The position numbers were made by a program, and so were the translations under genes. From Tetrapyrgos nigripes (Eukaryota; Basidiomycota; Agaricomycetes; Agaricales; Campanellaceae): a stretch of 64,000 bases of DNA. The notes under the pieces were generated by a model, which had not been told where the DNA came from, searched no databases, and saw only the letters and a program-made list of their open reading frames with translations. Below, one piece after another: positions 5,168-39,851 of the stretch (the first letter of the stretch is position 1; each line of letters opens with the position of its first letter). The stretch covers positions 46,181-110,180 of the forward strand of contig JAACJM010000267.1 of NCBI GenBank assembly GCA_013368315.1, in the 5' to 3' direction.

Positions 5168-5455
5168 CACCTCAGGCACCCCCTGGGAGCTACCTCCTTA
5201 GGCTGTACTCTCTCTGTACAGATTTCAGCCTTAAGGTAGGTAAATACCTGGGAGGCTCCCTGGCTGTAGGGAGCTACCCACACTCCCTGGGAGCCTCCTG
5301 GTATTGTGTGTCTAGGCTCCCATAAACCCTAGATTGTGTATGCTGGGAGCTCCCAATGTCCTGAGGGAGGTACCACCTCCTGTCACTCTGTCACAGGGTG
5401 TCCGGGTCTTTTTTTCTCAAAAATGCGGCTTTTCTGCTTTTTAGATTGTTATTTT
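5168..5455 (+). repeat. Left terminal inverted repeat of KDZ giant
   Basis: 288 bp, nearly identical to the complement of 24427-24715. Contains several GGGAGCTACC/GGAGCTCCC motifs, the same core found in the subterminal arrays. The inner end is at AACAATC/GATTGTT followed by TTTTA, after which the two sides diverge. Confidence 0.9.
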
Positions 5456-5792
5456 ATAAGCTTGGTTCTTATGCTTTTTAAAGTCTTACTTGTGTCTCAT
5501 GTATGTAGTTAATGTAGCTAGCTACCACAAAAATATGTCTCTACATTGTACTTACTACTTAGCAATATTACTTATAGCTTTCTAGTCATCATTGCTCAAA
5601 CATAGAGGTGGCACCTAGGCAAATGAAATTCTTGGTAGTCAGTTTATTATATAGTTTAATATATAAAGCTGGTATCTATCCGATTTTTATCAGGCCTTAT
5701 AATCGGGTTAGGGAAAAAGTATAGACACTTTAGATTGCTTGTCAGACCCAGGAATCTAACGGGAACTCTTGCAACATCAATTGAATCAGATA
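5456..5792. other. Unassigned subterminal DNA of KDZ giant
   Basis: AT-rich DNA between the left TIR and the Tc1 copy. I see no ORF or repeat of note. Confidence 0.5.
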
Positions 5793-7414
5793 CAGTTCAA
5801 AAAATTGTCCACATGTTTCGCATTTTTGGAAAGATTGCCAATTTAAGCAATACTGAGTAGAGATATTGAAATGTGGTCAGTGATGGCAGAACGCCCTTGA
5901 TAAGAGCTACAATAATCTGTTTTATTTGTCCTATTTGGCTCAAAACTCATGGAGATATGATTGATTTAAAATGGTATGTCATTTGGACAATTTTTTGAGT
6001 TGCCACTTCAAAATCAGTATTGTAACTATGTGATGTCTCATAGATGACATCATAAGTGGAGTTGTACAATGATGCAATGGCTACATCATAATGATATCAT
6101 AGCTGCCAGCTGGACCATATATAAGGGCATCCAGTTGTTCTATAGCCCTCATCAAATCATGAGACCCATCACATCCACCCAGAAAGACAATATCCTCTCT
6201 CTCCTCCAAACTTCTGCTTCATCCAGGGAAATCTCTGCTAAAACTGGGGTATCCAAGTCAAAGATTGCTTCTCTGGCCAAAGAGATGTATCCTGACAAGG
6301 AGAACCATCAAGCAGGGCGTCCTAGAAAGCTGTCTACCACTGATGAACGTGCTGCTATCCAACAAATCAACACTGGCAAAGCTGAAAATGCTACAGAAGT
6401 GGCCAGAAACATCAATCCCCTCCTTGACCAACCTGTCTCCACCCAAACCATTCGAAATTCCCTTCTCAGGCATGATGTGGACACATCTAAAACGAAGAAG
6501 AAGCCCAAACTCACTGCAGCTCACAGGAAGGCTCGTTTAAACTTTGCACAGAAGTACAGAAACTGGACTGTGGATGACTGGAAAAGGGTTATTTGGTCAG
6601 ATGAGACTAAAATCAATCGATATGGGTCAGATGGACAGCAGTATGTGTGGGGGAGGAAGGGTGAATCCTTGGGAGAGAGAAATGTGGTGGAAACAGTCAA
6701 ATTTGGAGGAGTAAATATCATGGTGTGGGGATGTATGGGTGGGAAGGAGTTGGAAACATGGCAGAGGTGGAGGGCAGGATGAATGCAGAGCAGTATGTGG
6801 ACATTTTGGAGAACAACCTTCTGGAGAGCATGGATATTTTGGGTGTTGATCCAGAGGTGGCCATTTTTCAGCAAGACAATGATCCTAAACACAAGTCAAA
6901 ACTGGCCACCAAGTGGTTTGAAGACAACAACATCCATTGCATGAGCTGGCCTGCTCAATCTCCTGACCTGAACCCCATTGAACACCTCTGGACAACCCTC
7001 AAACACAAGCTCAATGGATATGACACAGCACCCTCTGGAGTTTGGGAAATATGGGACAGAGCAGCTGAAAAGTGGGATGAAATCACAGAAGAAGATTGTC
7101 AGAAATTGATCAGGAGCATGCCTAGAAGGATTGAGGCTGTGTTGAAGGCCAAAGGAGGGCATACCAAGTACTGAGCTAGCACTTTCTGTATTTTCACTTG
7201 CATGTCAAAAAATTGTCCAAATGACATACCATTTTAAATCAGTCATATCTCCATGAGTTTTAAGCCAAATAAGACAAAACAGACAGAATATTGTAGCGTT
7301 TATCAAGGGCTTTCTGCCCATCACTGACCACATTTTAATATCTCTACTCAGTATTGCTTAAATTGGCAATCTTTCCAAAAATGCGAAACATGTGGACAAT
7401 TTTTTGACCCACTG
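5793..7414 (+). mobile_element. Tc1/mariner transposon, nested in the KDZ giant
   Basis: The 1622 bp element is flanked by TA (5791-5792 and 7415-7416). Long terminal inverted repeats cover 5793-5998 and 7205-7414, starting CAGT and CAGTGGGTCAAAAAATTGTCC respectively; three bases are missing at the left tip. Each TIR carries the TCAAAAAATTGTCC motif at its outer edge and again, inverted, at its inner edge, a double-site arrangement known from IR/DR Tc1 elements. A single transposase gene lies between. TIRs differ at scattered positions, so it is not brand new. Confidence 0.92.
6160..7174 (+). pseudogene. Tc1-family DD34E transposase, one frameshift
   Basis: The N-terminal paired-type helix-turn-helix region (STQKDNILSLLQTSASSREI, AKTGVSKSKIASLAKEM) is followed by a GRPRKLS hook and a second helix-turn-helix (VARNINPLLDQPVSTQTIRN). 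The catalytic domain shows the first Asp in VIWSDETKINRYGSDG, the second in IFQQDNDPKHKSK and the Glu in SPDLNPIEHLW with 34-residue spacing, i.e. DD34E, the cut-and-paste transposase triad. MRPITSTQ at 6160 is the likeliest start; the upstream in-frame Met at 6069 adds an unrelated tail. A single missing base near 6738 (after VWGCMG) moves the frame to WEGVGNMAEVEGRMNAEQY, so the protein is interrupted before the second catalytic Asp. The C-terminus GGHTKY is the normal end. Confidence 0.9.
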
Positions 7415-7583
7415 TATATAGTTAGATATATACATAGATTATTACCTGTGGCCTCACCTTCCCTCGCATCACTTTCTTTGGCCCACCCGCCTGCTCTTTC
7501 CCTTGCCTTGCCAATTAACTAGTTTATGTGAATATGTACCTAGCAATTATACATCTCGTTTGTATGCCACCTCCCTCTTCCTC

Positions 7584-7806
7584 TGGTAGCTACCAAGCCT
7601 TCTCTGGTAGCTCCCACTCTCTCCCTGGAAGGTGATGGTAGCTACCAGAGAAGGCGTGGTAGCTCCCGCTCTCTCCCTGGAAGACAGTGGTAGCTACCAG
7701 AGAAGGTGTGGTAGCTCCCACTCTCTCCTGGGAGGGGAGTGGGAGCTACCACGCCTCCCTCGGTAGCTCCCACTCTTTCCCTGGAGGACAGTGGTAGCTA
7801 CCACTC
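7584..7806. repeat. Left subterminal repeat array of KDZ giant
   Basis: Four 52-53 bp units start at about 7584, 7636, 7689 and 7741, each with TGGTAGCTACCA and, about 25 bp on, GGTAGCTCCC. The GGTAGCTACC core is a perfect 10 bp palindrome. The same core dominates the array at 23.4-23.9 kb at the other end and occurs in the TIRs, so these are candidate transposase-binding sites. Confidence 0.8.
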
Positions 7807-7971
7807 TGCTACTCTGCCTTCAAAATTGACAAGCTGTAGTTCACGCAAGTGCAACAGCTTGTACAAGGAAAACTTTTCAATAAATGATTTTCATAACTAC
7901 ATAAGACAAGACACGTTAAACTATTCGGTTCCTAATATTACAACGTTAAACAACTCAATTTACTGTTAGTG

Positions 7972-10900
7972 TCAGGTCAAGTTAACTTCGCCCCGCTCCA
8001 AATCTCTGTATCCCTCGATTATGTCCTGGGAGTCAAGATGCTCCGTCAAACTATCGCTGTGTCCCTCCATGTACTCCGTCCCGAATTCATCATCACCCTC
8101 GCTATCACCGATTGTTGAATTGAAAAGGTTTTGTCTTCGTACTTCTCCAATTTCACCATCTGTAGGCCGTTTTGCGCCCCAGGCAAGGTTCTCGTCAATC
8201 AGAATGGACCGCTCCCAGTGGACATAGGCCGTCAAGAGGAACTGCTTGCGCTGTTGCAGTTGATGAAGAAGACCTTCATTTTCTGAATCATAAAAGCCAA
8301 TAAGTTAAAAGCTGTAACATATAAAAAGACCCTCACCTTTGCACGACTCAATTGCCAGCAAGACTGTCTGCCATTCTTCTGCAAACCACTCAAACAACGA
8401 CTTTTCCTCCCTCACTAAGCGTTCCTCCTCCTTAGTTGCCCGGTTGAGCTCCAGAAGAGCTCTAATACCCTTGCGGACATCGTCGTTGGCCATCCACGGT
8501 GGTGGCAAATCATTTTCATCTTCACCGAGGCCTGCATCCTGCCAAATGTCCTCATCAACGTCCAAGTTGAAGAGGCTTCCTTTCTCTATCCTCTGTGGTG
8601 CAACAGCCTGAACAGGAGCCTTTCCCTGGCATATGAGAGAGGAGATCTCATCACAGAGTGTGTTGTATTTATTAGCCAACACGTTTATACTCAGATCTCG
8701 GTGTTGAATGGCATCCTGATTATGAGCGTGAAGGCGTTCTTCTGTGTAATACAAATCATTATCGTAGTCAGTACTGTACTCTGCTAATCCATAGAGATGC
8801 TCACCGCTTCTTTGGTGTCGATAACACCTTTCGAGCCAGGTTAACTCAAACTTCCGGGCAATCAACTTCTGACGCAGGCGTTGCTTGAGAGCAAGTGCAT
8901 TCAGACGTTTCGTGTAAAAGGGATGGTTTTGGAGGTTCTTGAGCTCTCTTTGTTCTGCTGCACCTAGTTGCCATTCCTTCTGAGCGAGCTTAATCCTGTT
9001 GTTGGTCCCTTGTTTGACGAGCTTTGACTAGTTCGTCATACATAGCCACAGTCTTGTAACGTTCGGTATTTGGTGAGATTATCACCCGCTCGAGGTCAGT
9101 TATCTTGGATTCGATGACGTCCAGGCTTTCATGAAGGCGAAGGGCTTCTTTTACGACTGCTTTACCTGCATGAGCATGTTGTCCTAAATAAAGCATCCCA
9201 TACTCGTCAGTCTTGTCAATATTGTAAACCGAATGTAAACGCACTAGGAAGAGGTCTAGTTTGTGCTTCAACCTGCTCATTCCACTGCGCCCTGAGAAAG
9301 CTTTCGTCTTGTGTGGATTCGGCCAGGTCTTTGGTGGCGTCCTCACGCCGATTATATACCATCCTCTTCTTCCTCTCTAGAGAGCTCACCGAGCTAAGGA
9401 AAACCAGATCGTTATGGCGGTGGAGTTGCATGTCCAACGTGTATAGCTGGAGATAATACTGTAGACTTGTTAACAATTTTTTCCATGCAATGAATAATGA
9501 TGACTTACCCCAACAACTCTGGTGTACGCTACCAAGTGATTCAGGCAGCTCCAACACTGCTCACAGCCTTCGCCATCACAGAAACCAAACCAGACCCGTT
9601 TCCGTGGATGGTAGATTAGTTGACATGCCCAGTTATGACCATAGGCATGAAATACGGAAACGGCCCAAAAAATCTGCTTGTGGAATTGCTTTAAAAACCC
9701 CCACTTGAGGCAGCTTTGTTCTAGCTAGCATGCGATGTCGTAGAGCAATCCTATCTTCCAGTCATCAGGCAAATGTTCGAAAAGAGTCGCAATCATGGCT
9801 AGGGCGTAGTGTTGTTTCTCGCCCACAGACTCCATGGATACCATAAAGAGCGCCGCATCGTGGATACAAAACATTCTGGCGCAAGCGGTCGCGTCATAGC
9901 CTGCAGCTGGTGACTTAGCCAAGTTCTCCTGAGCAGCGTGAAAGCTGGATTGGCACCCGTCGAGGGCAGACTTGGGTACACGCATCCCATGCTCGAAATG
10001 GTCCTGCGGTAAGTCTTCATCGTCTCTCTTTCCATGCGTGGGCGGACGACCAGACCTTGTATCCTCAACAAGCCTCTCCCACTCTTTCACTGTCATCTCT
10101 GGAATGAAAAAAGTGTCCGGGTGGAACCAGGGAGGGTCTCGTCCACTCTTCTTGTTGTGTTTCTGGGTGAAGCAAGCGTCTATGGTGACGAAACATCGAG
10201 GTCCAGGGGTGGGCTCCTCCAGCGATGTGCTCCCAAAACATTTTGGACATCGTGAACGGAGATATTCACTAGGACGATTTCGTCGTTCACTTGGTTCTGG
10301 TGGAGTCTCGGATGGGGTAGTTGGGGGCAAGGTTGAGCCGGCAATGATAGGTGTGGACGGTGCTGGCTCCTGAGGCCGTGCAGAACTTAACAGCTGATCT
10401 CTAGCATGTTCCAACTTGATTTTGACCACTTCCTCAGTTGCGTCCTGGCCTGAGAGCAGTTCCCAAAACGCCGGCGTAAGGGGTCCTGCCCATGCAGTCG
10501 GTAACCTTGCTCTGAAAGTTGCTCCATAAGTGCTCCAGTCCAGGCTGTCACGTTGGGTGATATCCGCAGGTACAGACGAGCCACGAATTCCAGCATACAG
10601 ATATCAACCGCCAGCATGGGCAACACTGGCGCACATGGAAATAAACCGTTCTTGACGAGCTGGACCGCGGCAGGAGCACATTGGTCACAAATCCACAGCT
10701 TGACGGTCTCGATACCTAAATAATAGTCATTTTTAGTAGATGATTGAATGTGAAAAGTATAACAGACGTACTGAAGAAGCGAATAATGATCACCGAATGC
10801 CAGCGACCCTTCTGACACTCACAGCTCTCCTCAAACTGGTTATCAGGGTCATGACGCAAGTTTTTTAGTCCTTCTAAGCAAATCCATATAGGGTTCCACC

Positions 10901-11289
10901 AGCGTCGGTATGGTGACCTTCAGCCAACGTCTCCACTGACGCTCTTTCTTCAGCTTTTGGGATTGTTTATGAGGTGAGGCTGGCTCGGGATGCATAAACT
11001 CCTGCAACAATGGAACAACGTCGTCTTCTTTGGTTGGCGCTATGGCAGCAAGTGGTTGATTTTCCTCATCCAGTCGAGCAGGATGATCACCATTCAGCCC
11101 AACTTGGCCATGAAGACGGGGATGATTTGATTTCTGGGTCAAAGACACACCTCCACCGAGGTAGACCAGATCTTCCTCCCCCTTCCTTCGTCATTTCATG
11201 CCTGCACCAGGGCCGATGACCTTAGGCCTATAATCCTGGGCTGTGAATTTGTCCCGAGGTTTCTTTGGCGACCTATAGCGACTGGCCAT
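7972..11289 (-). pseudogene. KDZ-family transposase, decayed
   Basis: Reading downwards from ATG at 11287-11289: MASRYRSPKKPRDKFTAQDY, a TGA at 11191-11193 (GMK*RRKG), then the conserved QWRRWLKVTIPTLVEPYMDLLR, a Cys-bearing CECQKGRW segment, NGLFPCAPVLPMLAVD and DPLRRRF. The core follows: FVTIDACFTQKHNKK (catalytic Asp region), CIHDAALFMVSMESVGEKQHYALAM and LYDIAC, with a TAG at 9725-9727 directly after. It then reads FHAYGHNWACQLIYHPRK, DGEGCEQCWSCLNHLVAYTR, a helical C-terminal part ending QTRPLP, and the long tail (LFNLDVDEDIWQDAGLGEDE, EEWQTVLLAIES) to 7972. KDZ enzymes are DNA transposases of basidiomycete genomes. At least two stops (both explained by C-to-T change) and two frameshifts (after DPLRRRF, and near 9300) make this copy inactive. 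Several short introns are probable. Confidence 0.88.
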
Positions 11290-11680
11290 GCTGCAATAGA
11301 CAAAATCATGAAAATGATAGCGGTGGTGGTATATTGCAAGGTGCTGAACACTGTACTACGCCAGCACGTGCTGCTGCAAGCCAGGAAAGGAAACCTAAGA
11401 TTGAGTCCTTCAGAACTTAATATTAACTCGTAACTTACCATTGTCCTTGTGGCTATTTGAGCTGCAAAAGGAAACCAAAACAATATGCTGATTGGGGTAA
11501 GCGGAGGCAGTACAACTCATCCGATTGTTGTTGTCGCCATCGGCTAATCCCGCTAGTTTTACATCATTGTGGACACCATTTCTTTTGAGCAAGACAATGG
11601 TAATAAAAAATCTTTATTGTTCTACTACTACGAGATGACTACTCCATCTGATACTCTCAAAAAATAGTGACCATGAAGGG

Positions 11681-11688
11681 TATTAAAA
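11681..11688 (+). promoter_or_regulatory. TATA-like box of first paralogue
   Basis: TATTAAAA lies 42 bp before the ATG at 11723. The second paralogue has TATAAAA at 12841-12847, 41 bp before its ATG. The surrounding promoter DNA (TTTATTGTTCTAC, TACGAGATRA) is conserved between the copies, which supports a real core promoter. Confidence 0.5.
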
Positions 11689-11722
11689 CGTCATCTCAAC
11701 CATCCTAGGCCCAACTCCAGTC

Positions 11723-12450
11723 ATGTCCTACCTCGCTGACCTTGTTGCAGCGACCTCCCTCTCACAGGTGATCCGTCAAGCTGGCTTGCGAGAGTCATTC
11801 ACTTCTACCTTGCATCCTCCGGTCAACACTGTGCCTTACCTCAAAAACCACCTCTCCATGCGCGAGCAAGCCAAATGGTCTATCGTTCTTCAAGTCGCTC
11901 CTAAGCTCGCTGAGGAAGTACTTGAGTTCCTTGTCGCAGAGGATCCACTTCTCCACCTCACCATCAGCGTCTCTGACCGAGGTTGGATCACCACGCACTC
12001 TCGCTTCCACGACCATGACGACACGGACGACGAGTACCACCAGATCTCGGTCAGTGAAGATGAGGGGATTGATTTCATGTTGGCTTTGGCAGCGTGGGAC
12101 AGTGAAGAAAAGGCTATTGTTGCACACAGACGGGGTGAGTTTTCTTCTAAGCTGGCCCTCAGAACCCACACTCACCGACACACTCTTATTAGAATATGAG
12201 ACCATAGAACATGAATACCTGGAATTTTGGACAATAATTGCAGAGTTTGGAAAGGAGATTTCATGTGCATGCTCACCTTCTCACTCATATTCGTCCTCTA
12301 ACAGCTCTCTTACTAGCTGACCATCCCTGTCTTCACGAACACTTATTCAAGCTTGGCTTTAATCAAGCATGCCCTGAGTGCTTTACCAATCCTTCTGTCG
12401 ACCTCCCCCTTGGCACGATGTCTGATCCTATCCAGCTGGATAGCAACTAG
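11723..12450 (+). CDS. Unknown small gene, copy A of a tandem pair (cargo)
   Basis: The first exon encodes MSYLADLVAATSLSQVIRQA and continues with STLHPPVNTVPYLKNHLSMR, VAPKLAEEVLEFLVAEDPLL, LTISVSDRGWITTHSRFHDH, an acidic DDTDDEYHQISVSEDEG and IDFMLALAAWDSEEKAIVAH. A GTGAGT donor follows at about 12135. A later exon in another frame (12238-12447) reads RRFHVHAHLLTHIRPLTALL, ADHPCLHEHLFKLGF and ACPECFTNP before a stop; the exact splice or a frameshift between the two is unresolved. I do not recognise the family. There is no signal peptide or membrane segment. It sits between the KDZ and SPT5-like genes, and a duplicate follows at 12882. Confidence 0.55.
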
Positions 12451-12881
12451 CGACTGTTAAAATCTAGTAAGTAAAACCGTTTTACATTGGGCAGATAGCG
12501 CAATCTAACTTACCTTGGATTCCCCCTCATCTATAGCTTCAGTCAGTCTCCCATCGGTATGGTCAGGGTAATGTAGTTTAACGTCGTGTCTCGGACAAGC
12601 GCCTTTACGATCAGACTTAGTATTACCATGTAACTCTATTCAAAAGACTTGAAGGTATCTACAAATGAATCCAAGTAAAGTATCTACACTGAAAGAACTG
12701 AAAGCAACCACGAAAAAGAGAAGTTGAACAGTGTAGCTGAGGCCATTGTCGTCACCCTCGGCTCATCTAGTTTTTATTGTTCTACATCTACGAGATAATG
12801 AGACAAACACATACATTCTCGACAAATTGGTCATGAACAGTATAAAATGTGTTCTGAACCACCCAAGGCCCCACTACAAAC

Positions 12882-13416
12882 ATGTCCTACTATTACATAT
12901 ACTATCTCAACGACATGTTCTATTTCAACGACGCGTCCATGTACGACGACGACTTTACTGCAGAGTGCTCCGTCTCTGCAGCGTCGGACTTGACTGCAGC
13001 GTGCTCCATCTCCAGAGTCCTTCAGTTTGCCGACTTGCCAATTTCCTTCACTTCAGCCCTGCATCCTCCAGTAAACACCGTGTCTTATCTCAAAGACAAC
13101 AGCTCCACACGTGAGCAAGCCAAGTGGGCCATTGTTTCTCACGTTGCCCCCAAGCTCGCTCAGTCAGTCCTTGACTGCCTTGCCTGGAGGATCCTATTCT
13201 GGGCCTCACGATCTGCGTTTCCGACGGTGGTATTGTCACCGTACACACTGACTATCACGACATCTACGATGACTATGACGAGGACGACGAGTACCAGCGC
13301 ACCTCTATCAGTGAAACCGAGCAGATTGACTTCTTGCTGGCTTTATTGGCGTGGGACAATGAAGAGAACGCTATCCATGCGCACAAGACTAGCGACTGCC
13401 AAATTATAGTCAGTTA
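12882..13416 (+). pseudogene. Unknown small gene, copy B of the tandem pair, frameshifted
   Basis: Starts MSYYYIYYLNDMFYFNDASM and aligns with copy A over SFTSALHPPVNTVSYLKDNS, STREQAKWAIVSHVAPKLAQ and VLDCL. One base is missing after this (near 13186), and the homologous sequence continues in another frame: EDPILGLTICVSDGGIVTVH, YDEDDEYQRTSISETEQIDF, LLALLAWDNEENAIHAHKTS. The 5' promoter region and the 3' region (the TAATGTAGTTTAACGTCGT stretch at 12569 and 13514) are also shared, so the whole transcription unit was duplicated. Copy B has an N-terminal extension that copy A lacks. Function unknown. Confidence 0.6.
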
Positions 13417-13736
13417 AACCATTTTCCATCAGCCAGCTAGCACAATCTAACTTACCTTGGAGTGATCCTCATCTGTTGCTTCTGTCCATCTCCCATTACA
13501 ATGGGTCGTAGTAATGTAGTTTAACGTCGTCTCGGACAAGCACCCTTATGATCAGTCTTAGTATTACAATGTATCTCCATTATCAAGAATTGAAGTATCT
13601 ACAAATGAATACAAGTATTTACAATGAACAAATACACGCAATATTGATACCAAACCGACAGCAAGTCCAAACAAGTATGTTCATGCAAAGTAGATGTAAT
13701 ACAGGGGGTATGGATGCGTGCAAAATGTCCAATAAA

Positions 13737-16700
13737 TCACTCCTCCTTCTTCTTCTTGGACGGGTGTTTCTGCTGTCGCTTCTTTCTCAACGCTGCTTTT
13801 CTCTCCTGCACCCAGGAAGAGCATGGACTATCACGAGATATCGGACTGGCACTCGCACAATCGCTCGCTTCAATAAGCAACTCCTCGTCCCAGACCTCCT
13901 CCTGTGCTGTTCCCCAGTTTCTGAAAGTCGCCACCACCATCCAGGGCTCCTCGTCGTGGCCGTCCTTTGTGTTAAACCGAACATAGAGACGACGAGCATA
14001 TTTGCCTGCATGTTCCCCAAAACAAATGAGGATGCCTCCTTCATGAGCTGTAGCTCTCACAGGCATTGGATAGACCTCCGCCAGATCCACAAGGAAGGGT
14101 TTGCTTTTACCATATTGAAGGCGCACCTTCTTGAGATCCAACAAGGGAGTCGCATGCCTTCGGTCTTGTTCAGGTCGGTTTTTGGGTTTGTGAGTAGCTA
14201 TGAATGTCTTCCCGTCGAGTGGAGGGTGCATCCACGTCGGTAGAGATTCCGTAGTAAGTAATGGCCAGTCGAGTTCGGAGTAGGTGGGGTCCCAGGCACC
14301 ACCATCATGAGCCACTTGTTCGTGATGGGGTGGAGGTGGAGTGAGAGAGCGGGGAAGAGTGGATGCAGACGAAGAGGCTTTGGGGATCTTGATGGGTTTG
14401 ACAGAGAACTTAGGCTGATAGTACCGCTGGGAGTGCTTTAAAGGGTGCGCTTCGTTTAGTCCCTGTCCAGTACTGCTCACGAAGTCAGTCGTTGGATCAT
14501 GAGAGGCAATAAAAAAGCTAATACTCACTTCGCATCACGAATCCAACTATAATCAATCTCCATTCTCCCTGCGTTTCTGTGAGTGTATGTCATGACCTGA
14601 CTGAAGCTGATTGTGACGTGCAATCCACTAGGGAATGCCCGCATGGTGTCTCCTCGCGAAACATTGACAACAATGCCTTCATAAAATTTCATCGGACCAC
14701 GAATGACAATGACATTAATGTTCTCCCAAGGTGCGCGAGGTGTCTTGGGCACCATCTTTGCAGAGGTTTCCGGCATGGCTAGGGATTGAGACGCTGGATC
14801 TCCTTGTGCTGCACCGTGGTCCTGGTCTTCGTGATCCTGATCCCAGTCAAGTTGATGAAACTGCTTTTGATGCGGAGCAAGAGGCAATACGTCCTTCAGC
14901 AACATTCTTGACCTGTTTTTACAATTCAAGGTGAGGAAGAGATCATAGCAAAAAAAAGTATAAGACTCACAACACCTGAACAATGTCGTCGTGTTGCAGG
15001 ATGGCTGACTCATTCAAGAGAGGAAAATACACTTCTACCTTGGTATACGGATTGGGGTAGAAGACGTTTGTGATGTAGCCTGTGTAGCTAGCGTATTTTC
15101 CAGCGCCTTGACGGCTGGAGACATGCTGGTCTATCCAGGGAAGACAATGACCTCCATCTGAATCTTGGGCACCAACACGCTTACATGTGTTGACATGGAA
15201 ATGGTAGACCTGCTCTAAGACTCAATTTGTATGTAAATCTCGATAAAAAGATAACTTGCCCTATAATCTTGATGGCCTGCCATTTCTATGACCTTGCAGG
15301 TCTCGCCAGAAATATTGACTATGACTCCATGAATGAGAGCGTCTCCATGAGAAACAACGACATTATCTGTGCAACGGAACCGCTTCCGGATGTTGAGTTG
15401 CTTGACCCATTCTTCAGGCTGAGCAGGATCCAAGTATGACACCAAACATTTTTCCCCACTAACTTCCCGAACCATTCCTGGCCGTATCAGCGTTTTCTCT
15501 ATCTGTGGTGACCTCACTGCTATTCTTGTTTTCTTCTTCTTGTCGAGTGTCTCCGCTAGAGCCATGAGCTGATCGAAGCATTGCGGGTTGTCCTCTACAT
15601 CCGACTGGCCTTCTTCCTCTCGGTTCTTCCCTCGACGTTCTTCGACCTGAGCCCAAGCTGGCTTCTCGGCACCATCAGCTAGCCTCTTCAAGGTATCAAC
15701 TTCTTCATCTGCTTCAAAAATCCAACTAGATGGCACTGGAAGTGGATGGGTCTGCAACAATGGATGTTGGCATTGGTTGAAAAGGACCCTGGTGTGGTAC
15801 GAGATATCGACGTCTGCATAGCTCACAGAACTGATGTCAAATGCCTTGACCAATAGTCCGTTCTCGTATTCCAAACCGTTCCCCGCTCGCCCAGTCATCA
15901 GTGGCTCGTCGACATTTTCTCTGAATAGGTGCTGTTCACCACGACCTTCGGTGGCTTTCTGTTTACCCTTGACTGAGTCGCTGCTAGACCGAGGAATGAC
16001 GAGAACGACAACTCGCCGGGCTGGACCCGAGGTTTCTAGTCTGACTACGAAACCCACATCACCAGTATACATGCCCTTCCTCACTCTGACCCAGCTCATT
16101 GGTTTGATAGCTGGCGGAGTCCATTGAAGCAGCTGACCCATCTCTTGGGCAGAGACCAATTCTCCACTGCGACTACGCCTCACATAGTTACAACTTTGAA
16201 GAAACTGGATGAGAGGTGCTGACTTGGCAAAGGATGGATGGAGTTTAGGCTCTGCTTCGATGTAGACCCACCCCGAGAGGCTAGGTATGCGCAAGGCAGA
16301 ACAGATGAGACAAGGTGACGTGAAGGGGGCAGATGTGATAGCTGAAGGATGGGTGACTGGAGAAGGATGGGTGACTGGAGAAGGATGGGTGACTGGAGAA
16401 GGATGGGTGACTGGAGAAGGATGGGTGACTGGAGAAGGATGGGTGACTGGAGAAGGATGGGTGACTGGAGAAGGATGGGTGACTGGAGAAGGATGGGTGA
16501 CTGGAGAAGGATGGGTGACTGGAGAAGGATGGGTGACTGGAGAAGGATGGGTGACTGGAGAAGGATGGGTGACTGGAGAAGGATTGGTGACTGAAGACGG
16601 ATTGACTGGTTCGGTGACTGATGATGGCTCGGGGACGGTGGTCATATTCCTGGTGAGCCAAGGAGCGACTGGACCAAAGGATGAGATTGTAGCTGCAGGA

Positions 16701-17539
16701 GCAGGACTAGGGACTGAGGCCTGGGTGGATGTGGTCATCCCCTGAGAGACACTGTTCTGGGACAACCACTGCTGCTCCAACGAGTTGATTGTATCCAAGG
16801 CAGCCTGCAGCCCAGTCTCCTCTTCCAGGATGGTAGCTGATACAGCAGCATCCCAGTCTTTACCGACGTATTCGTTTTGCAAGATTCGCTCCAATTCGGC
16901 ATGGATCTCAGGTATCTCGCTCCCTGAGTGAAGACCTCGCCAAACAGTGTCAAAGGCCTCATGGAAACGGGACATCCGAGGGGTTTGAGTTGGTATTGGG
17001 ACCTGCAGTGGAGGTGTGGTTGAAGGTTGGACAGAAGGAAAGCCGTCTGGTGTGGTAAAACGCTCATATAGCACAGAGACGAGCTCATATTCTGACCCAG
17101 GCTAGATGATGTAGCTCCTATGTCAGTATGGAAACGGGACATTACCACAAATCCTACTTACTTTACATTTGACATGCCAAAACGCGGGTGGGTTGACCTG
17201 TCGGAGCAGCGAGATATGTAATATTTCATCACTGATATCCGAGGACACGTTAATTGGAGGAACACTGGTGTTTGCACGCGTCTTGCTGCGCTGGATAAAC
17301 GCGTCCCACAGTGTACTTTCTTCAGCTTCTTCATGATGGTGCAGTGCTTGGTTTTTCATCGTGAAACACTACAGAAAAGGGTCAATAACTATTCTATACA
17401 CTTGGACATAAAAAACATACTTTCTTCTCCCTCCCACTTCTCTGCCTCCTCCTCTTTTTTCCTCGCTATCTGGAAGAAAGAGCGGCTCTTCTTCTTTGTC
17501 TTCTGAGACGCCGGCTTCTGTATCAATAAACGGGTTCAT
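13737..17539 (-). CDS. SPT5-like protein (NGN and KOW domains), transposon cargo
   Basis: Spliced from ATG at 17539: an acidic start (MNPFIDTEAGVSEDKEEEPL), then an NGN domain beginning FWHVKCK, an intron, and PGSEYELVSVLYERF. The NGN domain is split by about 220 residues containing some 13 PSPVTH hexapeptides, and resumes at LSGWVYIEAEPK. The first KOW region is PMSWVRVRKGMYTGDVGFVV. Further KOW-like blocks are FRCTDNVVVSHGDALIHGVI, YASYTGYITNVFYPNPYTKV and NINVIVIRGPMKFYEGIVVN. It ends in a Lys-rich tail (HPSKKKKEE). SPT5 partners SPT4 and travels with RNA polymerase; here that role is inferred. Introns look clean (GTAAGT...TAG at 17158-17103) and one uses GC-AG (after GHQDYR, about 15268). 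I see no stop or frameshift, unlike its neighbours. The usual C-terminal heptad-type repeats are absent. Confidence 0.75.
16340..16590. repeat. 18 bp coding minisatellite (PSPVTH)n
   Basis: About 13 nearly perfect copies of GGATGGGTGACTGGAGAA, encoding PSPVTH on the minus strand inside the NGN insert of the SPT5-like gene. Copies are almost identical, indicating recent expansion or homogenisation. Unit length is a multiple of three, so copy number can vary without a frameshift. Confidence 0.95.
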
Positions 17540-17767
17540 AGGGCCTGCCAGCCTGAACCGTCAGCATAACGTTTAGGATTTTTTCAACTACAGAAGACTA
17601 TAAAATAATATCGTTGTCAATGGACAACTTCACCAGCGTTTGGGCAGGTGGAAAACATTCTATTCTCATTCTAGCACTATCTATACTACGTAGTTCTACT
17701 AGAAGGGGCGTACTCACAAGGAGGAGGAGGAGGAGGCATAGGCAGTGGAGGGACTTGAGTGCTTGAG

Positions 17768-17990
17768 ACAAGATGGAAAACCTGACAAAGCTGGTGACGC
17801 GTGTACTGTATGGTTCCCGACAGAAAGAAATCTTCACACTTTTGGGCGCTTAAGGGCGCTAAAGCTATGACCAAGCATTTCCAAGCATTTAGGTCCTTTA
17901 GCGCCCTTAAGTGCCCAAAGTGTGAAGATTTCTTTCTGTCGGGAACTATACAGTACATGCGTTGCCAGCTTTGTCAGCCTTTCTTGTTCT
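17768..17990. repeat. Long foldback hairpin
   Basis: Two arms of about 82 bp, from CTGACAAAGCTGG (about 17783) and its complement (ending about 17981), pair with only a few mismatches around a loop of about 35 bp. The arms include CCCGACAGAAAGAAATCTTC. Weaker pairing continues outwards. An RNA from either strand would form a long near-perfect stem. No target duplication was seen, so it may be an inverted duplication rather than a MITE. Confidence 0.85.
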
Positions 17991-19403
17991 CTCCACAACT
18001 CTCATCACCGTCTGGGACGGTGGCCTCAAACCTTCTCCATCTCCCTCTGTTGTCCATGGTAAGGTTGATGGTGCCCATGGCCATCTGGTACGTCCCCATC
18101 CTCTTTTGTCTGTGGCTACCGTTGACGAGCTAACTGGTCTTCAAGTCACAAGTCTCATCGTCTGTGACAGTCACTTGTGAAGTTCTTTGTCCCCTCCGTT
18201 AATGCTAAGGTTTGCAGTGTTCATAGCCATCTTGTAAGTCCCCGTTTCATCATCTTTTATCTGTTGCTATCGTTGACGAGCTGGCCTGCAGGCTTAGTCT
18301 GACCAACGCAGACTCTACCCATCATCCTCTTCATGTGTACGTCTGGCAGGCGCATCTACACTTAGATCGTCGTCAAGGTACATCAGCCTGTTCATGTCAC
18401 TGCCAGCTAGAGTCTATGTGGTGAGTATCCCATGGTCCCTGTGATGGATGACGCCCTCACACCTCTCTCTAGCTCACTTCATTGTCTACAACATTGAGCT
18501 GCGGCATCCTCCTCATGTCCTCTAGAGCAGCTGGAGCTCATAGGAGCCGGTGAGTATCTCTTCCTCCCTCATTGACCACTGGTTGACCTAATGTTTGGAA
18601 CAGCTCTCAGAGTGTCGGACATCTTTGACAGGTTGACCGGTTTTACTCGCCGTCACATTGTCCTCACCAGTTAGTTCTCCAGGGTTTTTTTTATGACACG
18701 GTAAGCAGTCCCAGTGTCGAGTTTCCAGTATCACGCCTGCTCACTGAGCATTGTAGCTTCACTGACGTTCACTCCAAGAGAAAGCTGCTGCAAGCGTGCA
18801 GTTGTTGGGTTTTTATCTTCTTTACCCAGACATTGTATTTAGTTCTGCCTGTACTGTATCAAGTAGGTCCTATGAATATATTATACATTGTATCAATTAT
18901 GAGAGTGTCTCAAAGAGCCACGTATGTGGCTGAGAGTCAGTCTAGCGTAGCCCAAGGTGCCTCTGTTTTCACGTGATCTGACGCGACGCGTTTGTTTATT
19001 TGGCATAGCATCCGTGAGGACGTTAAACTAACCTCGGCAAAGAGCCTCGAGGAACTCAGAGTGTCGTCTGCAACGACGGTAAACTACCTATGCCCCAGTC
19101 TTGAATGAAGTTGATCTCAGTATTATTACATGACAGGTATGTACATTGTTTGCCCTTCCCTCCACGTCCATCACTCAATTATTATGGGATCCCTTCGTGC
19201 ACCAGTTCCTCTCATCAACAATCTCTGCAGCCAACGAAGACGTGCTTGTCCTAAGATTGGTGGGTAAGCAAGTTTACAAGTTTAGATAGAACTGAAGGAC
19301 TCACTAGCTTTGGCTTCCCAGTCTCTCACCATAGATTGAAGACGATGACGTGCACGCAAGCTGTCTGGTACAGGGTAAGTGATATTGTGTCTCTCCAGAG
19401 ATT
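17991..19403. other. Cargo region without a convincing gene
   Basis: Short open stretches occur on the plus strand (for example TVWDGGLKPSPSPSVVHGKV and GAHGHLVRPHPL, with a weaker second copy PSVNAKVCSVHSHLVSPR near 18200), but no continuous or spliceable reading frame. It may be a decayed gene with small internal duplications. Confidence 0.4.
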
Positions 19404-19751
19404 CTAGTGCTCACCTTCGTCCAGATTGCCCCTCAGATGGTTTAACCGACCCTCCCGCTCATTCCTGGTGTTAGCGTACTGCTGCCATTCCTCAAATGCT
19501 GCCCGAAGGAGCAGCTGCTCGTATGGAGACATGAAGGCGCATCGGGAAGCAACGTCGCAGTGAGCACAGTGGATGTCAAGCACGCCTTGTCCATTGATAT
19601 CGACATCATGGTATTGATCCCCTACTGGTCCATTGGGACAAATTGTGAGCTTGGTGAAGATGTTGGGATTAATTTCGCAGCGGATCATGAACCGAGCTTG
19701 CAATGCCTCGTCCCTGGGGATTAAATAGGTTGGAGCTTGAGGAGGCTGCAT
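19404..19751 (-). CDS. Hypothetical protein, 115 aa (cargo)
   Basis: Starts MQPPQAPTYLIPRDEALQAR and encodes a compact soluble protein with Cys residues in RCEINPN, LTICPNGP and DIHCAHCDVASRCAFM. The CxxC...C arrangement could bind a metal ion. The C-terminus is helical and charged (EQLLLRAAFEEWQQYANTRN). I recognise no family. It may be one exon of a larger gene; a TATA-like motif was not seen upstream. About 440 bp to the next gene hold nothing recognisable. Confidence 0.4.
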   Translation of the reverse strand: MQPPQAPTYLIPRDEALQARFMIRCEINPNIFTKLTICPNGPVGDQYHDVDINGQGVLDIHCAHCDVASRCAFMSPYEQLLLRAAFEEWQQYANTRNEREGRLNHLRGNLDEGEH

Positions 19752-20192
19752 GGCGAGTTGGAGGAAATCGTGAGTAGGGATGTGGTATCGGGACGGTTTG
19801 TAGGAATGGGCAACAGTGGTGATGCATCGGTTCGGGGGTATTTCAGGGTATGGTTGAGTCTGAGCAGGATTGGGACTTTTATTATCAGCTGTGTCATGGT
19901 ACGATACATATTAAACGAAATGACCAAATCGAGTACATAGGACAGTGGGCCCTAAATTGTAATTGTGCCTCGTCTTTCCCAGGACAAGTTAGGGAAACAA
20001 TGATTACATTTTGTATACCTGGATAGATCTATTGTCGATGTATCACCTGGTTCTTTGTCCAAGAGTTGTCAACCACCTTTTTCCTGGGAGTTCCAAATTT
20101 TTTCAGGGAATCTACCAAATTCGTAAGTTGTTCCAACTTAAACCAAGTTCCACCTCCTTACTCAAGAACTACTCCTTGTCTGCAGACCATAC

Positions 20193-23100
20193 CGATGTGT
20201 CTTCGCTCTAACGGCACCGCCAACGCTCCTCCTCCTCTTCCTGGAAGAGCCAAAGGACGCAACACCTCAAAACCACCCCAACGTCGACGAAGCTATACGA
20301 CTACTCAAGATTTACACACCGTGGAATCCTCGGCCAGTGTGTGTCTGCAATCACTGAGCAGCTCTTCGACAATTTCAAGTCAGCAGCGACTGAGTTGCCT
20401 CCGGAATGGGTCAAAGCCATTGACCAGGCGACAGTAGAGCCAGACGAGGAGCATGATGCCGGTGTTAGGCATTTAATGGCCTATCTGCCTACTTTACACG
20501 AGCACTGGTCAATGACAACGTCACAAACTCTTTCTTGCTCTATCAACTCCACCACAGTGTCTCGTTCAGCGACTCTGTCTGCTGATGAGAATGGTCGTAA
20601 ACACAACACTTCTGGGGAATCTACAGGCAAGCAGGAGGCAAACGACATAGTAGACGATGAGTTGGAGAACGATGATGTCACCGACGACGACAGTAGCGAC
20701 AATGGTGATGATTATGGTAAAACCATCGAGAAGGCGATGAAGATCAATATGGGCAGGATGCGTACCAGGAAAGCTGTGCTCAAATGCATGAGAGACGAGG
20801 CTAAAGGAGATTTCGCATCCGGGAAGAAAGACAAAGAAGAGGATGAACACCCGGTGACTAAACAAGCATCTGGGAAGAAAGGCGAAGAAGAGGTAGAACG
20901 GCCAGTGATGACAGGACAAGGAAAGGGTAGAAAACCCAAGGGCAAGGGGAAGGAGAAGGAGAAGACGACTGACGAGGGCAATTCTGACACAGCTGTTGAC
21001 TTTGTCACTGCAGCTGATGGTGACGAGGTGGAAGACGAAGAAGACAACCAGTCCAGTGAGCAACGGAAACGAGGCCCAATACCTGCAGCGGTAATGGCGA
21101 AGCTTTACGCTCACAGGTCAACATATGAAGCCTCAGTCAAAGAGGTTTGCAAGGTGGAGGGTATCTTGGTAGAGGCAGCATATTGCGCTATTGGGGACAG
21201 TGTGATTGCCTCCCGGGATCCAAACTGGTTCAATATGTATGAAAAGTGGTGGACAGCGGAAAATGGCAATCATGGTGACATCCCTAGCGACTGTAAGTCC
21301 TTGTTGCTTCTATTTTGTTTCCACTGATCATTTAAACGTGAATCTTTTCAGAAAACCCTGCATCCTTCCTGGCTCAGAAATGGTCAGAGAGCGGAAAAAG
21401 GACTCTTGGACCCGACTGGAGCGACCCCAAGAAGTATGGCGACACTTTCGCCTGGCTTAGGACCTGGTATCAAAACGAATACAACTCTCAAGGGCAGATG
21501 AAACAAGGACCGACGAAAGGGGCGATCAAATCAATTGCCCACACGATGGCGAATATGGTACGTCTACACGTCTTCCTCCCGCCAGTCTTTAAACCTGACG
21601 ATGTCCGGTAGGCAAGGCAAGCTTATCTGAACCGTGGACTCTGGGTCGTTGGCTACGTTGTTGACCTGAAAGGGAAGCACAGCGTCATGTTCGGCCACAG
21701 AGAGGAATACAAGGGTTTGAGGGAGAATAATGCAACCCAGATCAGGGCTCAGCTCCATGATCTGGAGGTCCTGATGGGTTGTGAGCATATTAGAGTCGCC
21801 TTCGCGTCAAACGTCAGCGAGACCGTCGACAAATGGCTTCAGCTGCCTCAAAGGTCACTGATCGTGACAGCGAGCGTGCGTTTTTGTCTCTTATGCTTAA
21901 GGGAGATCATGCAGCTTCGCTGTCTCTACAGAACTCTAATGCTATTGATATCTTCTAGACGAGCTCGGAATCTCGTGTGGTTGAGGTTTCCTGTGGAGAG
22001 GCTGGGCCGATTTTGCTTACAAACACCAACTGCGTATCGTCAACTGGGATGACAGCGTGAAGGTCCCTGGAGCAGGTGGGGTCAACGATGCCGTCAAGAA
22101 AACCCAAACTCCGACTTCTCTCACAAAAGCAAGAATCAATGAACTCCTCTGGCTGAAAGAGGCTTGGAAGAATGGGGTACACGATGATACTCCTCCCGAG
22201 ATCATCTCCAGGAAGGCCTTGCGAGTGGTGTCTTGGACTGACGGTATGTTCTCGGGATTTTTTAAGACCCCAACAAAGATTGACGATGTCGTTATCAGAT
22301 GAGAAGAGACTGCCGAAAGCGGAACAAGGCAACGTCGCACTAGTGATGTCAACCAACGGGGCCAAGAAAGTCGCTGTCTGACAGTCAGGAAAGTGGACTC
22401 TTGAAACCTCAGACAGCAACAGCGGTCCTGGCAAACCCAAGAAGACCAAGAAGTGCAATGCGAAGAAAATGAGCCAATCTGCAGCTAGCGACGATGAGGA
22501 GAATGAAGAAGATGAACCCCATGAGGAGGTCAGTAAGGATGTAGAAGAACAGCCCGAAGAGTATCCTTCACCCCCCCATCATCTTACTATGCATTTTAGC
22601 CCCTCTGCCGACAGCCAGCTGCGCCAGCACCCTGACCCCAGTCCTCTATCCTCACCAGTTCGCCGGGAACCTACGACAAAAGTTCATGGACGGTTCATTG
22701 GTGCCGGTCATCAAGAACGACACTTGCAATCGAGTGATGGAGAAGATCAGGACGTTGACAGAGACGAGTGGTACGAAGAAGGCTCCCCTAGGTGCGTTGC
22801 AGGTCCAAGCAACTCGAGGACATTGTTCGACACGAGCGGTGATCTCCCTATGCCCCGTAGGCTTCACACGAGGAAACATACTCACCAGCGAGGTCTTTCC
22901 CGTCCAATTTCGCCTGTAGTTGATGAGGATGTGGATGGGTTTTCTGCTGCTGGTGACACTTCAGAGTACGTCATGGTACCCATTCGCGTGGCCGATCTCG
23001 AAGCCAATCCGACGGCCTATGTCCAACGCCTTCCCAGACTATATCGCCCGGCGAAAGCCCTTCCGCATGTTCCACTGACAGGCAAACATCAAAGAGAGGA

Positions 23101-23212
23101 AGACAGCGACTCTGAAGAACCGTCGCCCAAGTCCAAAAAAATATGCAGTATCGACTTCATGCAGTTCCACCCAGGGATGGGAAAGGGGAAGGGGAAGCAG
23201 AAGCAAAACTAG
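20193..23212 (+). pseudogene. Unknown multi-exon Agaricomycete-type gene (cargo)
   Basis: A possible start at 20193 (MCLRSNGTANAPPPLPGRAK) leads, with an unresolved frame change, into the long exon from 20341: an acidic and Lys-rich disordered part, then KLYAHRSTYEASVKEVCKVE. After introns at about 21292-21351 and 21556-21611 it reads NPASFLAQKWSESGKRTLGP, AYLNRGLWVVGYVVDLKGKH, then FAYKHQLRIVNWDDSVKVPG and ISRKALRVVSWTD. The last exon is acidic and Ser/Pro-rich and ends MGKGKGKQKQN. It resembles in layout a repeated Agaricomycete family of unknown function (from memory of such layouts, not a search). Two in-frame TGAs (near 21980 and 22378) suggest recent decay. Confidence 0.5.
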
Positions 23213-23406
23213 GAAGTGGAGTGTCTTGTACAATTAGCAACCGTGTATTTTAGTCTGTCTTATGTGGTTTTGTTGTATGAAAATGGTTTATTCAAAAGTC
23301 TTTCTTGTATATGAAATGTTGAACTTGCGTACTCGACTCTCAGGACATAATATACAAGTACTCAATGATCGCTCTCCAAGTGCTAACAGAGACTCTAATA
23401 AGGAGT

Positions 23407-23895
23407 GCAGAAGGGCTGCGAGAAAGAGGCTGGGAGCTACCAGACTGGGACCGGGAGATACCGAGGGCTTCAAGGAAGAGAATGGTAGCTACCAGACTGG
23501 GATCGGGAGCTACCAGAGGCTCTGATAAGGAGTGCGGGAGCTACCACACTGTTGAGTGGTAGCTACCAGAGGTTACGAGAAAGAGGTTGGGAGCTACCAG
23601 ACAGGGATTGGGAGCTACAAAGGGCTGCAAGAAGATAACGGGAGCTACCGGACTGGAGTTGGTAGCTCCCAAGGGCCGCGAGGGAGTCTATGGGAACTAC
23701 CAGAGAGAAGTGGGTAGCTACCACACCCTGCGAGGGAGTCTATGGGATCTACCACACTGGAGCTGGGAGCTACCACAGGCTGCGAAGGAGTATATGGAAG
23801 CTACCAGATTGGAGTTGGGAGCTACCACAGGCTGCGAGGATGTGTATGGAAGGTACCAAACTGGAATTGGGGGCTACCAGTTGGAGCCACCAGGG
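23407..23895. repeat. Right subterminal repeat array of KDZ giant
   Basis: About 20 loosely spaced copies of GGGAGCTACCA or GGTAGCTACCA, often followed by GACTGG, spread over some 490 bp with irregular spacing. The core matches the left array (7584-7806) and the TIRs. The ORFs that run through it are by-products of the repeat. Confidence 0.8.
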
Positions 23896-24426
23896 AGTCT
23901 CACATACATAGTTTAATCCTACGTTATGGCGTTCATTCCTCTAAGATTCCTTAATATTTAATTTTAGGTCTTACTTTCCATTGCTGCATTCCAATATGGC
24001 CAGACATACAAACCCAGATTCAGTGTATTTTTTCCAGTTGACATATAGTGGTCATCTGGTCTATTTTGAGTAACTTATGGAGTTAAATACGTCTGCTGTA
24101 TTTTTATTCATCCACCCCACCACTAAGAATTAGTTGGCATTATTGTATCAAGTCTAAAGTGAAATGGAAGAGTATAAATAACAATCTAGAAAGCAAAAAA
24201 AAAAAAAACAGCATACCAATACAATGTCAAGCATTATTTTCATTCTTTTCCCCCGCTTTTTTTGTATTTTAACAGTTGCAATAAGAACAAGTACATCGCA
24301 AGGCTGATCCACAAGCACTTGAATTTGGTGGCATAATTGTAGTAATTCTAAGGTGAAATGGAGGTTCACAAGAACTTGAATTTGGTAGCATAATTGTATT
24401 GATTCTAAGGTGAAATGAAAGAGTCT
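23896..24426. other. AT-rich subterminal DNA of KDZ giant
   Basis: No gene. Contains two extra partial copies of the TIR inner edge (ATTCTAAGGTGAAATG with AACAATCTAGAAAGCA near 24150-24200 and 24340-24360), showing repeated slippage or partial duplication at this boundary. Confidence 0.5.
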
Positions 24427-24715
24427 AAAATAACAATCTAAAAAGCAGAAAAACCGCATTTTTGAGAAAAAAAGACCCCGGACACCCTGTGACAGAGTGA
24501 CAGGAGGTGGTACCTCCCTCAGGACATTGGGAGCTCCCAGCATACACAATCTAGGGTTTATGGGAGCCTAGACACACAATACCAGGAGGCTCCCAGGGAG
24601 TGTGGGTAGCTCCCTACAGCCAGGGAGCCTCCCAGGTATTTACCTACCTTAAGGCTGAAATCTGTACAGAGAGAGTACAGCCTAAGGAGGTAGCTCCCAG
24701 GGGGTGCCTGAGGTG
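24427..24715 (-). repeat. Right terminal inverted repeat of KDZ giant
   Basis: 289 bp, complement of 5168-5455 with very few differences (one extra G near GTCCGGGG and one C/T). Followed by the target duplication TCAAAAT at 24716-24722. Confidence 0.9.
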
Positions 24716-30232: not shown

Positions 30233-30985
30233 TAAGTCAGCAGGTCATACAGTAGTATTACTGGAATGAAATGTTGAAAAAGGTATTTGATAATACATCT
30301 GTAAGTCACCTTGACTTACTGAAGACTTTCAATGTGACATCTTGTCACAATAAAGTATACTGTAATACATTTCGAAATTAGAGAAGTATTTCAGTGTGAC
30401 TTTTTTTGTCACAGTAAGACATTAATAATACAAGATGGAATTACAGTAGACTTTCAGTGTGACAGTAAGTCACAGTATGTTAAGCAGTAATACTGCAAGG
30501 ATATACACAGGATTTACAATGACATGAAAATTGTAACATTCTGAAAAGCAACAGTGATTTGTAGTGTATTAACAATAGATTTACAGTGTGACTTTAAGGT
30601 CACGGTAATACACCAGTAATGTAACTTGTATTAGTGGGAAATTACTGGAGTGCAAGGAATCCTTGCAAAAACGTAATTACTATGACAAGGGTATTATAGT
30701 GTGACAGGAAGGTCCCTGTAATACATTGAAAAGTCAGAAAGAATTACAGTGGACATACATAGTAGAAAAATATTCAATAATACTCCTGTAAATCAGGCAG
30801 ATTTACAGGTGATTTACAAGAGAAGGATGGCATGTTTGACACATAGCAAAGAATAGTATTTTGGACCAGAACCACTCAGCAAGGGGAGAGGTTCAATAAT
30901 TGCAAATGACGGGTCAGCAAAACAAAAGTACATTCCAGGACAATTCTATGTCCATGACAACTTTGGGAATGCACATTCAGGGTGC
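30233..30985 (+). repeat. Left terminal inverted repeat of the 16.4 kb element
   Basis: About 750 bp with five or so hairpin motifs of the form CAGTGTGAC, 4-9 bases, GTCACAGTA (for example near 30331, 30395, 30458 and 30587), each tied to GTAATAC or TTACAG. The complement is at 45912-46672. Confidence 0.85.
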
Positions 30986-32288: not shown

Positions 32289-32597
32289 CTCGTAACACCT
32301 TTGTGAGGTGTGGATTCCTGGTTTGTGAATGCATTCTAGCTGCATTTCAGGTGCACGACACCTCCACAAAGTGTGGATTCCTTGTGTCAATCCATTCAGG
32401 CTGCATTCCAGGCACATGACACCTCCACAAAGCATGGATTCCTAGTGTGTGAATGCATTCTAGGTGCATTCCAGGTGCACAACACCTCCACAAAGTGTGG
32501 ATCCCTTTTGTGTGAATGGATTTGCGGTGCATGTCACCTCTGTGAAGTGTGGGTTCTTTGTGTGTGAATGCATTCTTGGTGCATTCCAGGTGCATGA
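32289..32597. repeat. 63 bp satellite array, left (part 2)
   Basis: About five units of the same satellite, in the same orientation as part 1, interrupted at 32598 by a solo LTR. Confidence 0.85.
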
Positions 32598-33358: not shown

Positions 33359-33359
33359 A

Positions 33360-39830: not shown

Positions 39831-39851
39831 AGGGAAGACTTGGGTCTGCAG

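What the first reader, a model, noticed from the sequence alone, without database searches (positions are those of the whole stretch)
5168..24715. A 19.5 kb KDZ-type transposon with multi-gene cargo, caught by a perfect pol interruption
Seen: ~288 bp near-identical inverted ends, exact 7 bp TCAAAAT duplication, and a gypsy pol frame that resumes without loss after one copy of TCAAAAT. Inside are a KDZ transposase, an SPT5-like gene, a tandem pair of unknown genes, a hairpin and an unknown multi-exon gene. KDZ elements are known for carrying extra genes in basidiomycetes (TET/JBP genes are the established case). A version with SPT5-like cargo and no TET/JBP that I can see would be a different cargo set.
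Basis: partly seen in the sequence, partly recalled or inferred. Interest (0 to 1): 0.88.

Follow-up and report, generated by a model that had tools for sequence, protein, structure and literature searches.

The report
Jumping gene carrying its own SPT5
A mushroom genome holds a family of large cut-and-paste transposons that carry, besides their transposase, a selected copy of the transcription elongation factor SPT5 behind a long hairpin, which suggests that the element brings along part of the machinery needed to read its own genes.

Summary
The element (5168-24715) has 289-bp inverted ends (288 of 289 aligned bases identical plus a 1-nt indel) and a 7-bp duplication; another gypsy copy shows the uninterrupted site. 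The host is almost certainly the agaric Tetrapyrgos nigripes. Of 6 copies whose two flanks could be read, 5 have 7-bp duplications (C153 has none). The transposase is KDZ; 7-bp duplications and CA..TG termini match published Kyakuja, but no tree with named Kyakuja was possible. The SPT5-like gene is real and not incidental: it lies upstream of KDZ, same strand, within 8 kb at 20 of 31 loci of this KDZ lineage, against 0 of 126 other listed KDZ matches. Its dN/dS against divergent copies (0.23, 0.29) is about the transposase's (0.19, 0.29). A long hairpin matches on 18 contigs; on 15 of the 16 with an SPT5-like exon-3 match it lies 646-831 nt upstream of it. Other SPT5-like loci, C144 among them, gave no hairpin match. 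A palindrome, GGKAGCTMCC, occurs 26 times in the window, only in the element's ends and subterminal arrays. No TET/JBP lies inside. An anti-silencing function is inferred. Verdict: new variant of a known kind.

The parts
5161..5167 (.). left copy of the 7-bp target-site duplication TCAAAAT
24716..24722 (.). right copy of the 7-bp target-site duplication TCAAAAT
5168..5457 (.). left terminal inverted repeat, begins CACCTCAGG
   Evidence: 28 genome matches
24426..24715 (.). right terminal inverted repeat, ends CCTGAGGTG
7585..7802 (.). left subterminal array: 9 GGKAGCTMCC palindromes, alternating 21/31-nt steps
   Evidence: same kind of array in other copies
23432..23826 (.). right subterminal array: 11 GGKAGCTMCC palindromes
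5793..7414 (+). nested Tc1/mariner insertion between TA dinucleotides (transposase ORFs 6048-7174); absent from C497
7972..11289 (-). KDZ transposase gene, multi-exon, approximate model; in-frame stop inside the KDZ domain of this copy
11687..12199 (+). tandem gene A, unknown function
   Evidence: dN/dS 0.53 against C335
12858..13414 (+). tandem gene B, paralogue of A, split over two frames in the window
   Evidence: dN/dS 0.78 against C335
13737..17539 (-). SPT5-like gene; model exons 17421-17539, 17162-17285, 15293-17101, 15010-15209, 14529-14912, 13737-14472 (1123 aa)
16344..16602 (-). 18-bp repeat, 14.4 copies, inside SPT5-like exon 3; not expanded in the other aligned copies
17776..17983 (.). 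long near-perfect hairpin about 240 nt upstream of the SPT5-like ATG
20212..23212 (+). right-hand multi-exon gene, unknown function; 5' limit not settled

Best explanation
This is one copy of a multi-gene KDZ DNA transposon family, about 17.9 kb long without the nested mariner. Shown: the ends, 7-bp duplications, an empty site, shared gene content between copies, purifying selection on the transposase, the SPT5-like gene and the right-hand gene, and a conserved hairpin in front of SPT5 at many loci. Inferred: the KDZ transposase, or a partner, binds the GGKAGCTMCC palindromes in the ends and subterminal arrays and moves the element by cut and paste with a 7-bp stagger. Inferred and weaker: the element-encoded SPT5 paralogue acts as an elongation factor that helps RNA polymerase II read the element under host silencing, the role that TET/JBP is thought to play in other fungal KDZ elements, with the hairpin as a control signal of that gene. 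Odds: transposon with SPT5-like as a working element gene 0.85; the anti-silencing role 0.35.
For: Ends and duplications; empty site; shared interiors of 8 other copies; SPT5-like upstream, same strand, within 8 kb at 20 of 31 lineage loci against 0 of 126 other listed KDZ matches, Fisher 1.7e-16 on 20 of 31 against 1 of 126 in any orientation; dN/dS against C335 and C144: SPT5 0.23/0.29, KDZ 0.19/0.29, right gene 0.19/0.22, off-frame SPT5 0.98-1.47; Spt5-NGN over cut-off and SPT5 chains at E 3.7e-6 with the exon-3 profile; housekeeping SPT5 is a separate locus on C28; palindromes 26 found, 0.13 expected, 0 of 100 shuffles; hairpin z -24 and fixed distance at 15 of 16 loci. Spt5 restricts heterochromatin in fission yeast (PMC10659198, abstract).
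Against: No expression, binding or silencing data. KOW domains score below their Pfam cut-offs. 11 of 31 lineage KDZ loci lack SPT5-like within 8 kb on the same strand. C153 has no duplication. Only 16 contigs with an SPT5-like match gave a hairpin match, while one search counted 44 SPT5-like loci; C144, C118 and C485 gave none. The host has only 2 DNA methylase matches, which neither helps nor hurts. Tandem genes are weakly constrained. The KDZ gene model contains an exon read in a doubtful frame, so its ratio is rough.
Confidence: 0.6

Rival explanations
1. KDZ transposon in which the SPT5-like protein works in transposition itself, as a DNA- or RNA-binding partner of the transposase or as a copy-number regulator, not against silencing.
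For: Constraint equal to that of the transposase and steady linkage to it fit a transposition partner equally well.
Against: NGN is the polymerase-binding part of SPT5 (recalled), and that domain is the best-supported match.
Confidence: 0.25
2. The hairpin is a source of double-stranded RNA that makes small RNAs, either self-limiting or a decoy, and the link with SPT5 is only by position.
For: About 100 nearly perfect base pairs, -162.5 kcal/mol; changes on both sides of pairs.
Against: Distance to SPT5 exon 3 is nearly constant at 15 of 16 loci. Two of the covariation measures are weak: further pair types 43 against 41.3, reached by 123 of 500 shuffles; pairs changed on both sides 22 against 17.4, reached by 4 of 500. 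Conversion between the arms could also keep them alike.
Confidence: 0.2
3. SPT5-like and the hairpin are hitchhikers captured once, with no use for the element.
For: Ratios between near copies are high (SPT5 0.59-0.98, KDZ 0.48-0.61); several copies carry stops and frameshift-type codons.
Against: Against divergent copies the ratio is 0.23-0.29, like the transposase, and the link spans KDZ domains down to about 46% identity.
Confidence: 0.08
4. Chimera of nested elements: the SPT5-hairpin part is a separate mobile element that landed in a KDZ transposon.
For: Nested insertions do occur: a Tc1/mariner sits inside.
Against: No inverted ends flank that part alone; same order in copies with the same ends; linkage through the lineage.
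Confidence: 0.04

Closest known systems
Kyakuja transposons with TET/JBP from Laccaria bicolor (Kojima 2025, PMC12730594; passages and sections 1 and 3.2 read)
   Same: KDZ transposase, 7-bp target duplications, 5'-CA..TG-3' termini, an extra gene that may counter silencing, agaricomycete host.
   Different: Those are said to have no inverted repeats and carry TET/JBP; this one has 289-bp inverted ends, no TET/JBP, an SPT5-like gene, a hairpin and further genes. SPT5 occurs 0 times in that paper.
Cryptococcus KDZ1, KDZ2, KDZ3 (PMC12810828; passages seen)
   Same: Large KDZ elements with long inverted ends (241, 139 and 169 bp), shown to move.
   Different: About 9-11 kb, duplications of 8 bp (KDZ1) or 4-8 bp; SPT5 occurs 0 times in that text.
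Specialised NusG/Spt5 paralogues: RfaH (PMC7593976, abstract) and plant KTF1/SPT5-like (PMC10229537, start of abstract)
   Same: A second NusG/Spt5-family protein beside the housekeeping one, linked to foreign or silenced DNA.
   Different: Not carried with a transposase between inverted repeats; recruitment to a DNA signal is unknown here. An analogy of function, not membership.

Membership tests
KDZ superfamily | KDZ transposase domain (PF18758) | tested here: met
   81.9 bits against 26.6 on one exon; genome match spans profile positions 2-205 of 217
KDZ superfamily | acidic catalytic residues (motif recalled) | tested here: inconclusive
   VTIDAC, YDIAC and DGEGCE stretches are present and alike in related loci; that these are the catalytic residues is recalled, not tested
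KDZ superfamily | CxC cysteine cluster before the transposase | tested here: inconclusive
   CxC1 21.4 bits, below its cut-off of 26.9
Kyakuja | 7-bp target duplication and CA..TG termini | tested here: met
   5 of 6 copies with both flanks readable; C153 has none
Kyakuja | no inverted repeats (as described for the L. bicolor families) | tested here: not met
   289-bp inverted ends, so it is not filed as Kyakuja
Kyakuja | transposase groups with named Kyakuja in a tree | not testable with these tools
   no reference Kyakuja sequences at hand
Zisupton | 8-bp target duplication | tested here: not met
   no 8-bp match in the 4 copies tested
SPT5/NusG protein family | NGN domain | tested here: met
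   28.9 bits against 22.4, in two stretches parted by an insert; P0001 carries PF03439 in the database
SPT5/NusG protein family | KOW domains | tested here: inconclusive
   KOW1 11.9, KOW5 12.6 and KOW6 13.8 bits, below cut-offs of 22, 27 and 27; the exon-3 profile matches solved SPT5 chains over the stretch after NGN
SPT5/NusG protein family | binds RNA polymerase and Spt4 | not testable with these tools
   structure models failed
RfaH-like specialised paralogue | paralogue distinct from the housekeeping factor, on mobile DNA | tested here: met
   separate SPT5 NGN match on C28; SPT5-like inside the transposon
RfaH-like specialised paralogue | recruited by a specific DNA signal | not testable with these tools
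   the hairpin is only a candidate

The most novel reading that the evidence does not exclude
A eukaryotic transposon lineage has evolved its own dedicated SPT5 with a cognate hairpin signal in front of the gene, so that RNA polymerase II is fitted out to read the element despite host silencing: a eukaryotic counterpart of specialised NusG paralogues such as RfaH and its DNA signal.
Probability: 0.15. Interest if true: 0.92.

Novelty: new variant of a known kind. Interest (0 to 1): 0.7.

Why it matters
KDZ elements are known mainly for one kind of extra gene, TET/JBP. A KDZ lineage that keeps an SPT5 paralogue under the same constraint as its transposase, with a hairpin at a fixed place in front of it, would be a second, transcription-based kind of companion gene. 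It makes a sharp question testable: can a transposon overcome silencing by bringing its own elongation factor? It also gives a name to a repeated family of which at least one member is now annotated as a hypothetical protein.

Tried and rejected
AlphaFold2 on SPT5-like exon 3 (12 sequences) gave mean pLDDT 32, on the tandem genes (9 sequences) 49; no fold search was run on either. The first protein-database search found nothing, probably swamped by the 18-bp repeat; in the first PDB search the best-scoring chain was a repeat-driven match to a transporter. Two later protein searches found only the T. nigripes protein among 5644 and 7490 candidates, so presence in other species is untested rather than excluded. 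My gene finder with loose penalties gave spurious exon chains; it was used for gene extents, except the SPT5 model, which P0001 supports. KDZ ratios came from wrong frames and were replaced, where one KDZ exon (10552-10715) is still read in a doubtful frame and the first contains a stop. KDZ trees have long branches and fragmentary rows; SPT5 presence needs 4 changes on the tree, shuffled mean 9.1, but I give this little weight. Rfam: no match at gathering scores in the window. Rejected: chance inverted repeat, nested chimera, TET/JBP cargo.

Limits of counts: 150 of 173 KDZ matches were listed, and 150 of 345 candidates scored. One search used 45 of the 84 SPT5-like rows, about one per locus, 31 lineage loci drawn from the 53 matches, and 126 other listed KDZ matches (a few of them two pieces of one gene). 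Hairpin alignment A4 used 10 sequences out of 18 contigs: C497, C403, C51 and C293 were left out as near copies, C104 and C571 were fetched but left out, C301 and C237 hairpins were not fetched; the C48 row is badly trimmed. The C104 stretch does not fold into the long hairpin. Some contigs may be alleles of each other (C459 has the window's left flank; C118 and C485 are alike), so loci are not all independent.
Full report
What was checked. The window lies on contig C262 of a 98.5-Mb genome in 587 contigs. The inverted ends at 5168-5457 and 24426-24715 agree at 288 of 289 aligned bases plus a 1-nt indel and are flanked by TCAAAAT. The interrupted frame is a gypsy pol, reverse transcriptase before and RNase H after the element, in register across one TCAAAAT. 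On C308 a gypsy copy 98% identical to the right flank carries TCAAAAT once and no element.

The family. The end sequence gives 28 matches in the genome. Both flanks could be read for 6 copies. In 5 they repeat 7 bases: TCAAAAT (window), TGCACTT (C43), TGTCTCA (C335), AATATCC (C144) and CTACCAC (C18). In C153, whose left end has an inner deletion, they do not. Eight other copies (C497, C403, C293, C51, C43, C153, C335, C144) share large parts of the interior. The window copy has in addition a Tc1/mariner at about 5793-7414, absent from C497.

Host. A search with the SPT5-like core returned one protein, hypothetical protein D9758_014235 of Tetrapyrgos nigripes, on a contig of 343,893 bases, the length of C83 here. 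Its residues 225-917 of 1237 are identical to the C83 stretch. The host is therefore almost certainly T. nigripes, an agaric of the Campanellaceae.

Genes. The transposase has a KDZ domain over the Pfam cut-off and runs over about 7972-11289, minus strand; this copy has an in-frame stop inside the domain. The SPT5-like gene has a six-exon model of 1123 aa; the annotated T. nigripes protein aligns collinearly with it from residue 110 to 1220. Spt5-NGN scores 28.9 bits against 22.4 in two stretches parted by an insert, and a profile of exon 3 matches solved SPT5 chains at E down to 3.7e-6. KOW models stay below their cut-offs. The housekeeping SPT5 is elsewhere, on C28. The tandem genes are paralogues of about 160-190 aa; B is split over two frames here. 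No Pfam family was found for the tandem genes or the stretch of right-hand gene tested (one exon has a match far below cut-off). TET/JBP: 2 matches in the genome, none here.

Selection. Against the divergent copies C335 and C144, dN/dS is 0.19 and 0.29 for KDZ, 0.23 and 0.29 for SPT5-like, 0.19 and 0.22 for the right gene; tandem A and B give 0.53 and 0.78 against C335. Off-frame ratios for SPT5-like are 0.98-1.47. Between near copies the ratios are higher (KDZ 0.48-0.61, SPT5 0.59-0.98), as expected if single copies decay after insertion.

Linkage. Of 31 loci of the close KDZ lineage, 20 have an SPT5-like match upstream on the same strand within 8 kb; of 126 other listed KDZ matches none has, and 1 has in any orientation (Fisher 1.7e-16 on the latter comparison). 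Within 21 kb the figures are 23 of 31 and 1 of 126 (5 of 126 in any orientation). Eleven lineage loci have none within 8 kb.

Cis elements. GGKAGCTMCC occurs 26 times in the 64-kb window, 0.13 expected: 3 in each end, 9 and 11 in the two subterminal arrays. Similar arrays recur in the other copies, though C144 keeps only 4 exact sites, on one side. The hairpin at 17776-17983 folds at -162.5 kcal/mol, z -24. DNA matches to it fall on 18 contigs. On the 16 of these with an SPT5-like exon-3 match it is upstream in 15, the nearest hairpin 646-831 nt away; on C48 it is not. C144, C118 and C485, which carry SPT5-like, gave no hairpin match. On 10 sequences 22 of 76 pairs show changes on both sides; covariation score 0.294 against 0.139 in shuffles, 0 of 500 as high, and 0.033-0.056 in slid controls; two other measures are weak (22 pairs against 17.4, reached by 4 of 500; further pair types 43 against 41.3, reached by 123 of 500). 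Conversion between the arms could produce the same pattern.

Interpretation. The element is a KDZ transposon. Seven-base duplications and CA..TG termini match the L. bicolor Kyakuja families of Kojima (PMC12730594), which however are said to lack inverted repeats, so I do not file it as Kyakuja. I infer that SPT5-like helps the element to be transcribed under silencing. In fission yeast Spt5 negatively regulates heterochromatin (PMC10659198, abstract), and RfaH, a NusG paralogue, activates foreign genes (PMC7593976, abstract). None of this is shown for this protein.

Novelty. Searches of the held open-access library for SPT5 with KDZ and for SPT5 with transposon, captured, fungi and transposase returned no paper. 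The original KDZ paper (Iyer et al. 2014, recalled) is not held, so an earlier mention there cannot be excluded.

Noticed in passing
window 30224-46681: A second large structure with long inverted ends (arms 94-95% alike) and 63-bp subterminal repeats, probably another big transposon; no target duplication seen at these limits.
   Followed up: partly
window 43399-44951: A fold-back structure with 443-bp arms, 97% complementary, and 22-bp repeats, nested in the structure above.
   Followed up: no
C335 and C18 element flanks (L022, L059, L060): By eye these two insertions also seem to lie in gypsy-like pol sequence, as in the window; no domain search was made.
   Followed up: no
C337, C376, C380, C301, C237: Each has two hairpin matches about 430-540 nt apart upstream of SPT5-like.
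   Followed up: partly
window 4960-4962 and L058: The gypsy pol carries an in-frame stop just before the MPFGLT stretch, and the C308 copy has the same stop. Described only.
   Followed up: no
C459:27900-29915 (L027): This contig has the window's left flank and the start of the element (99.4% over 528 bp), so the assembly probably keeps alleles or duplicate contigs.
   Followed up: no
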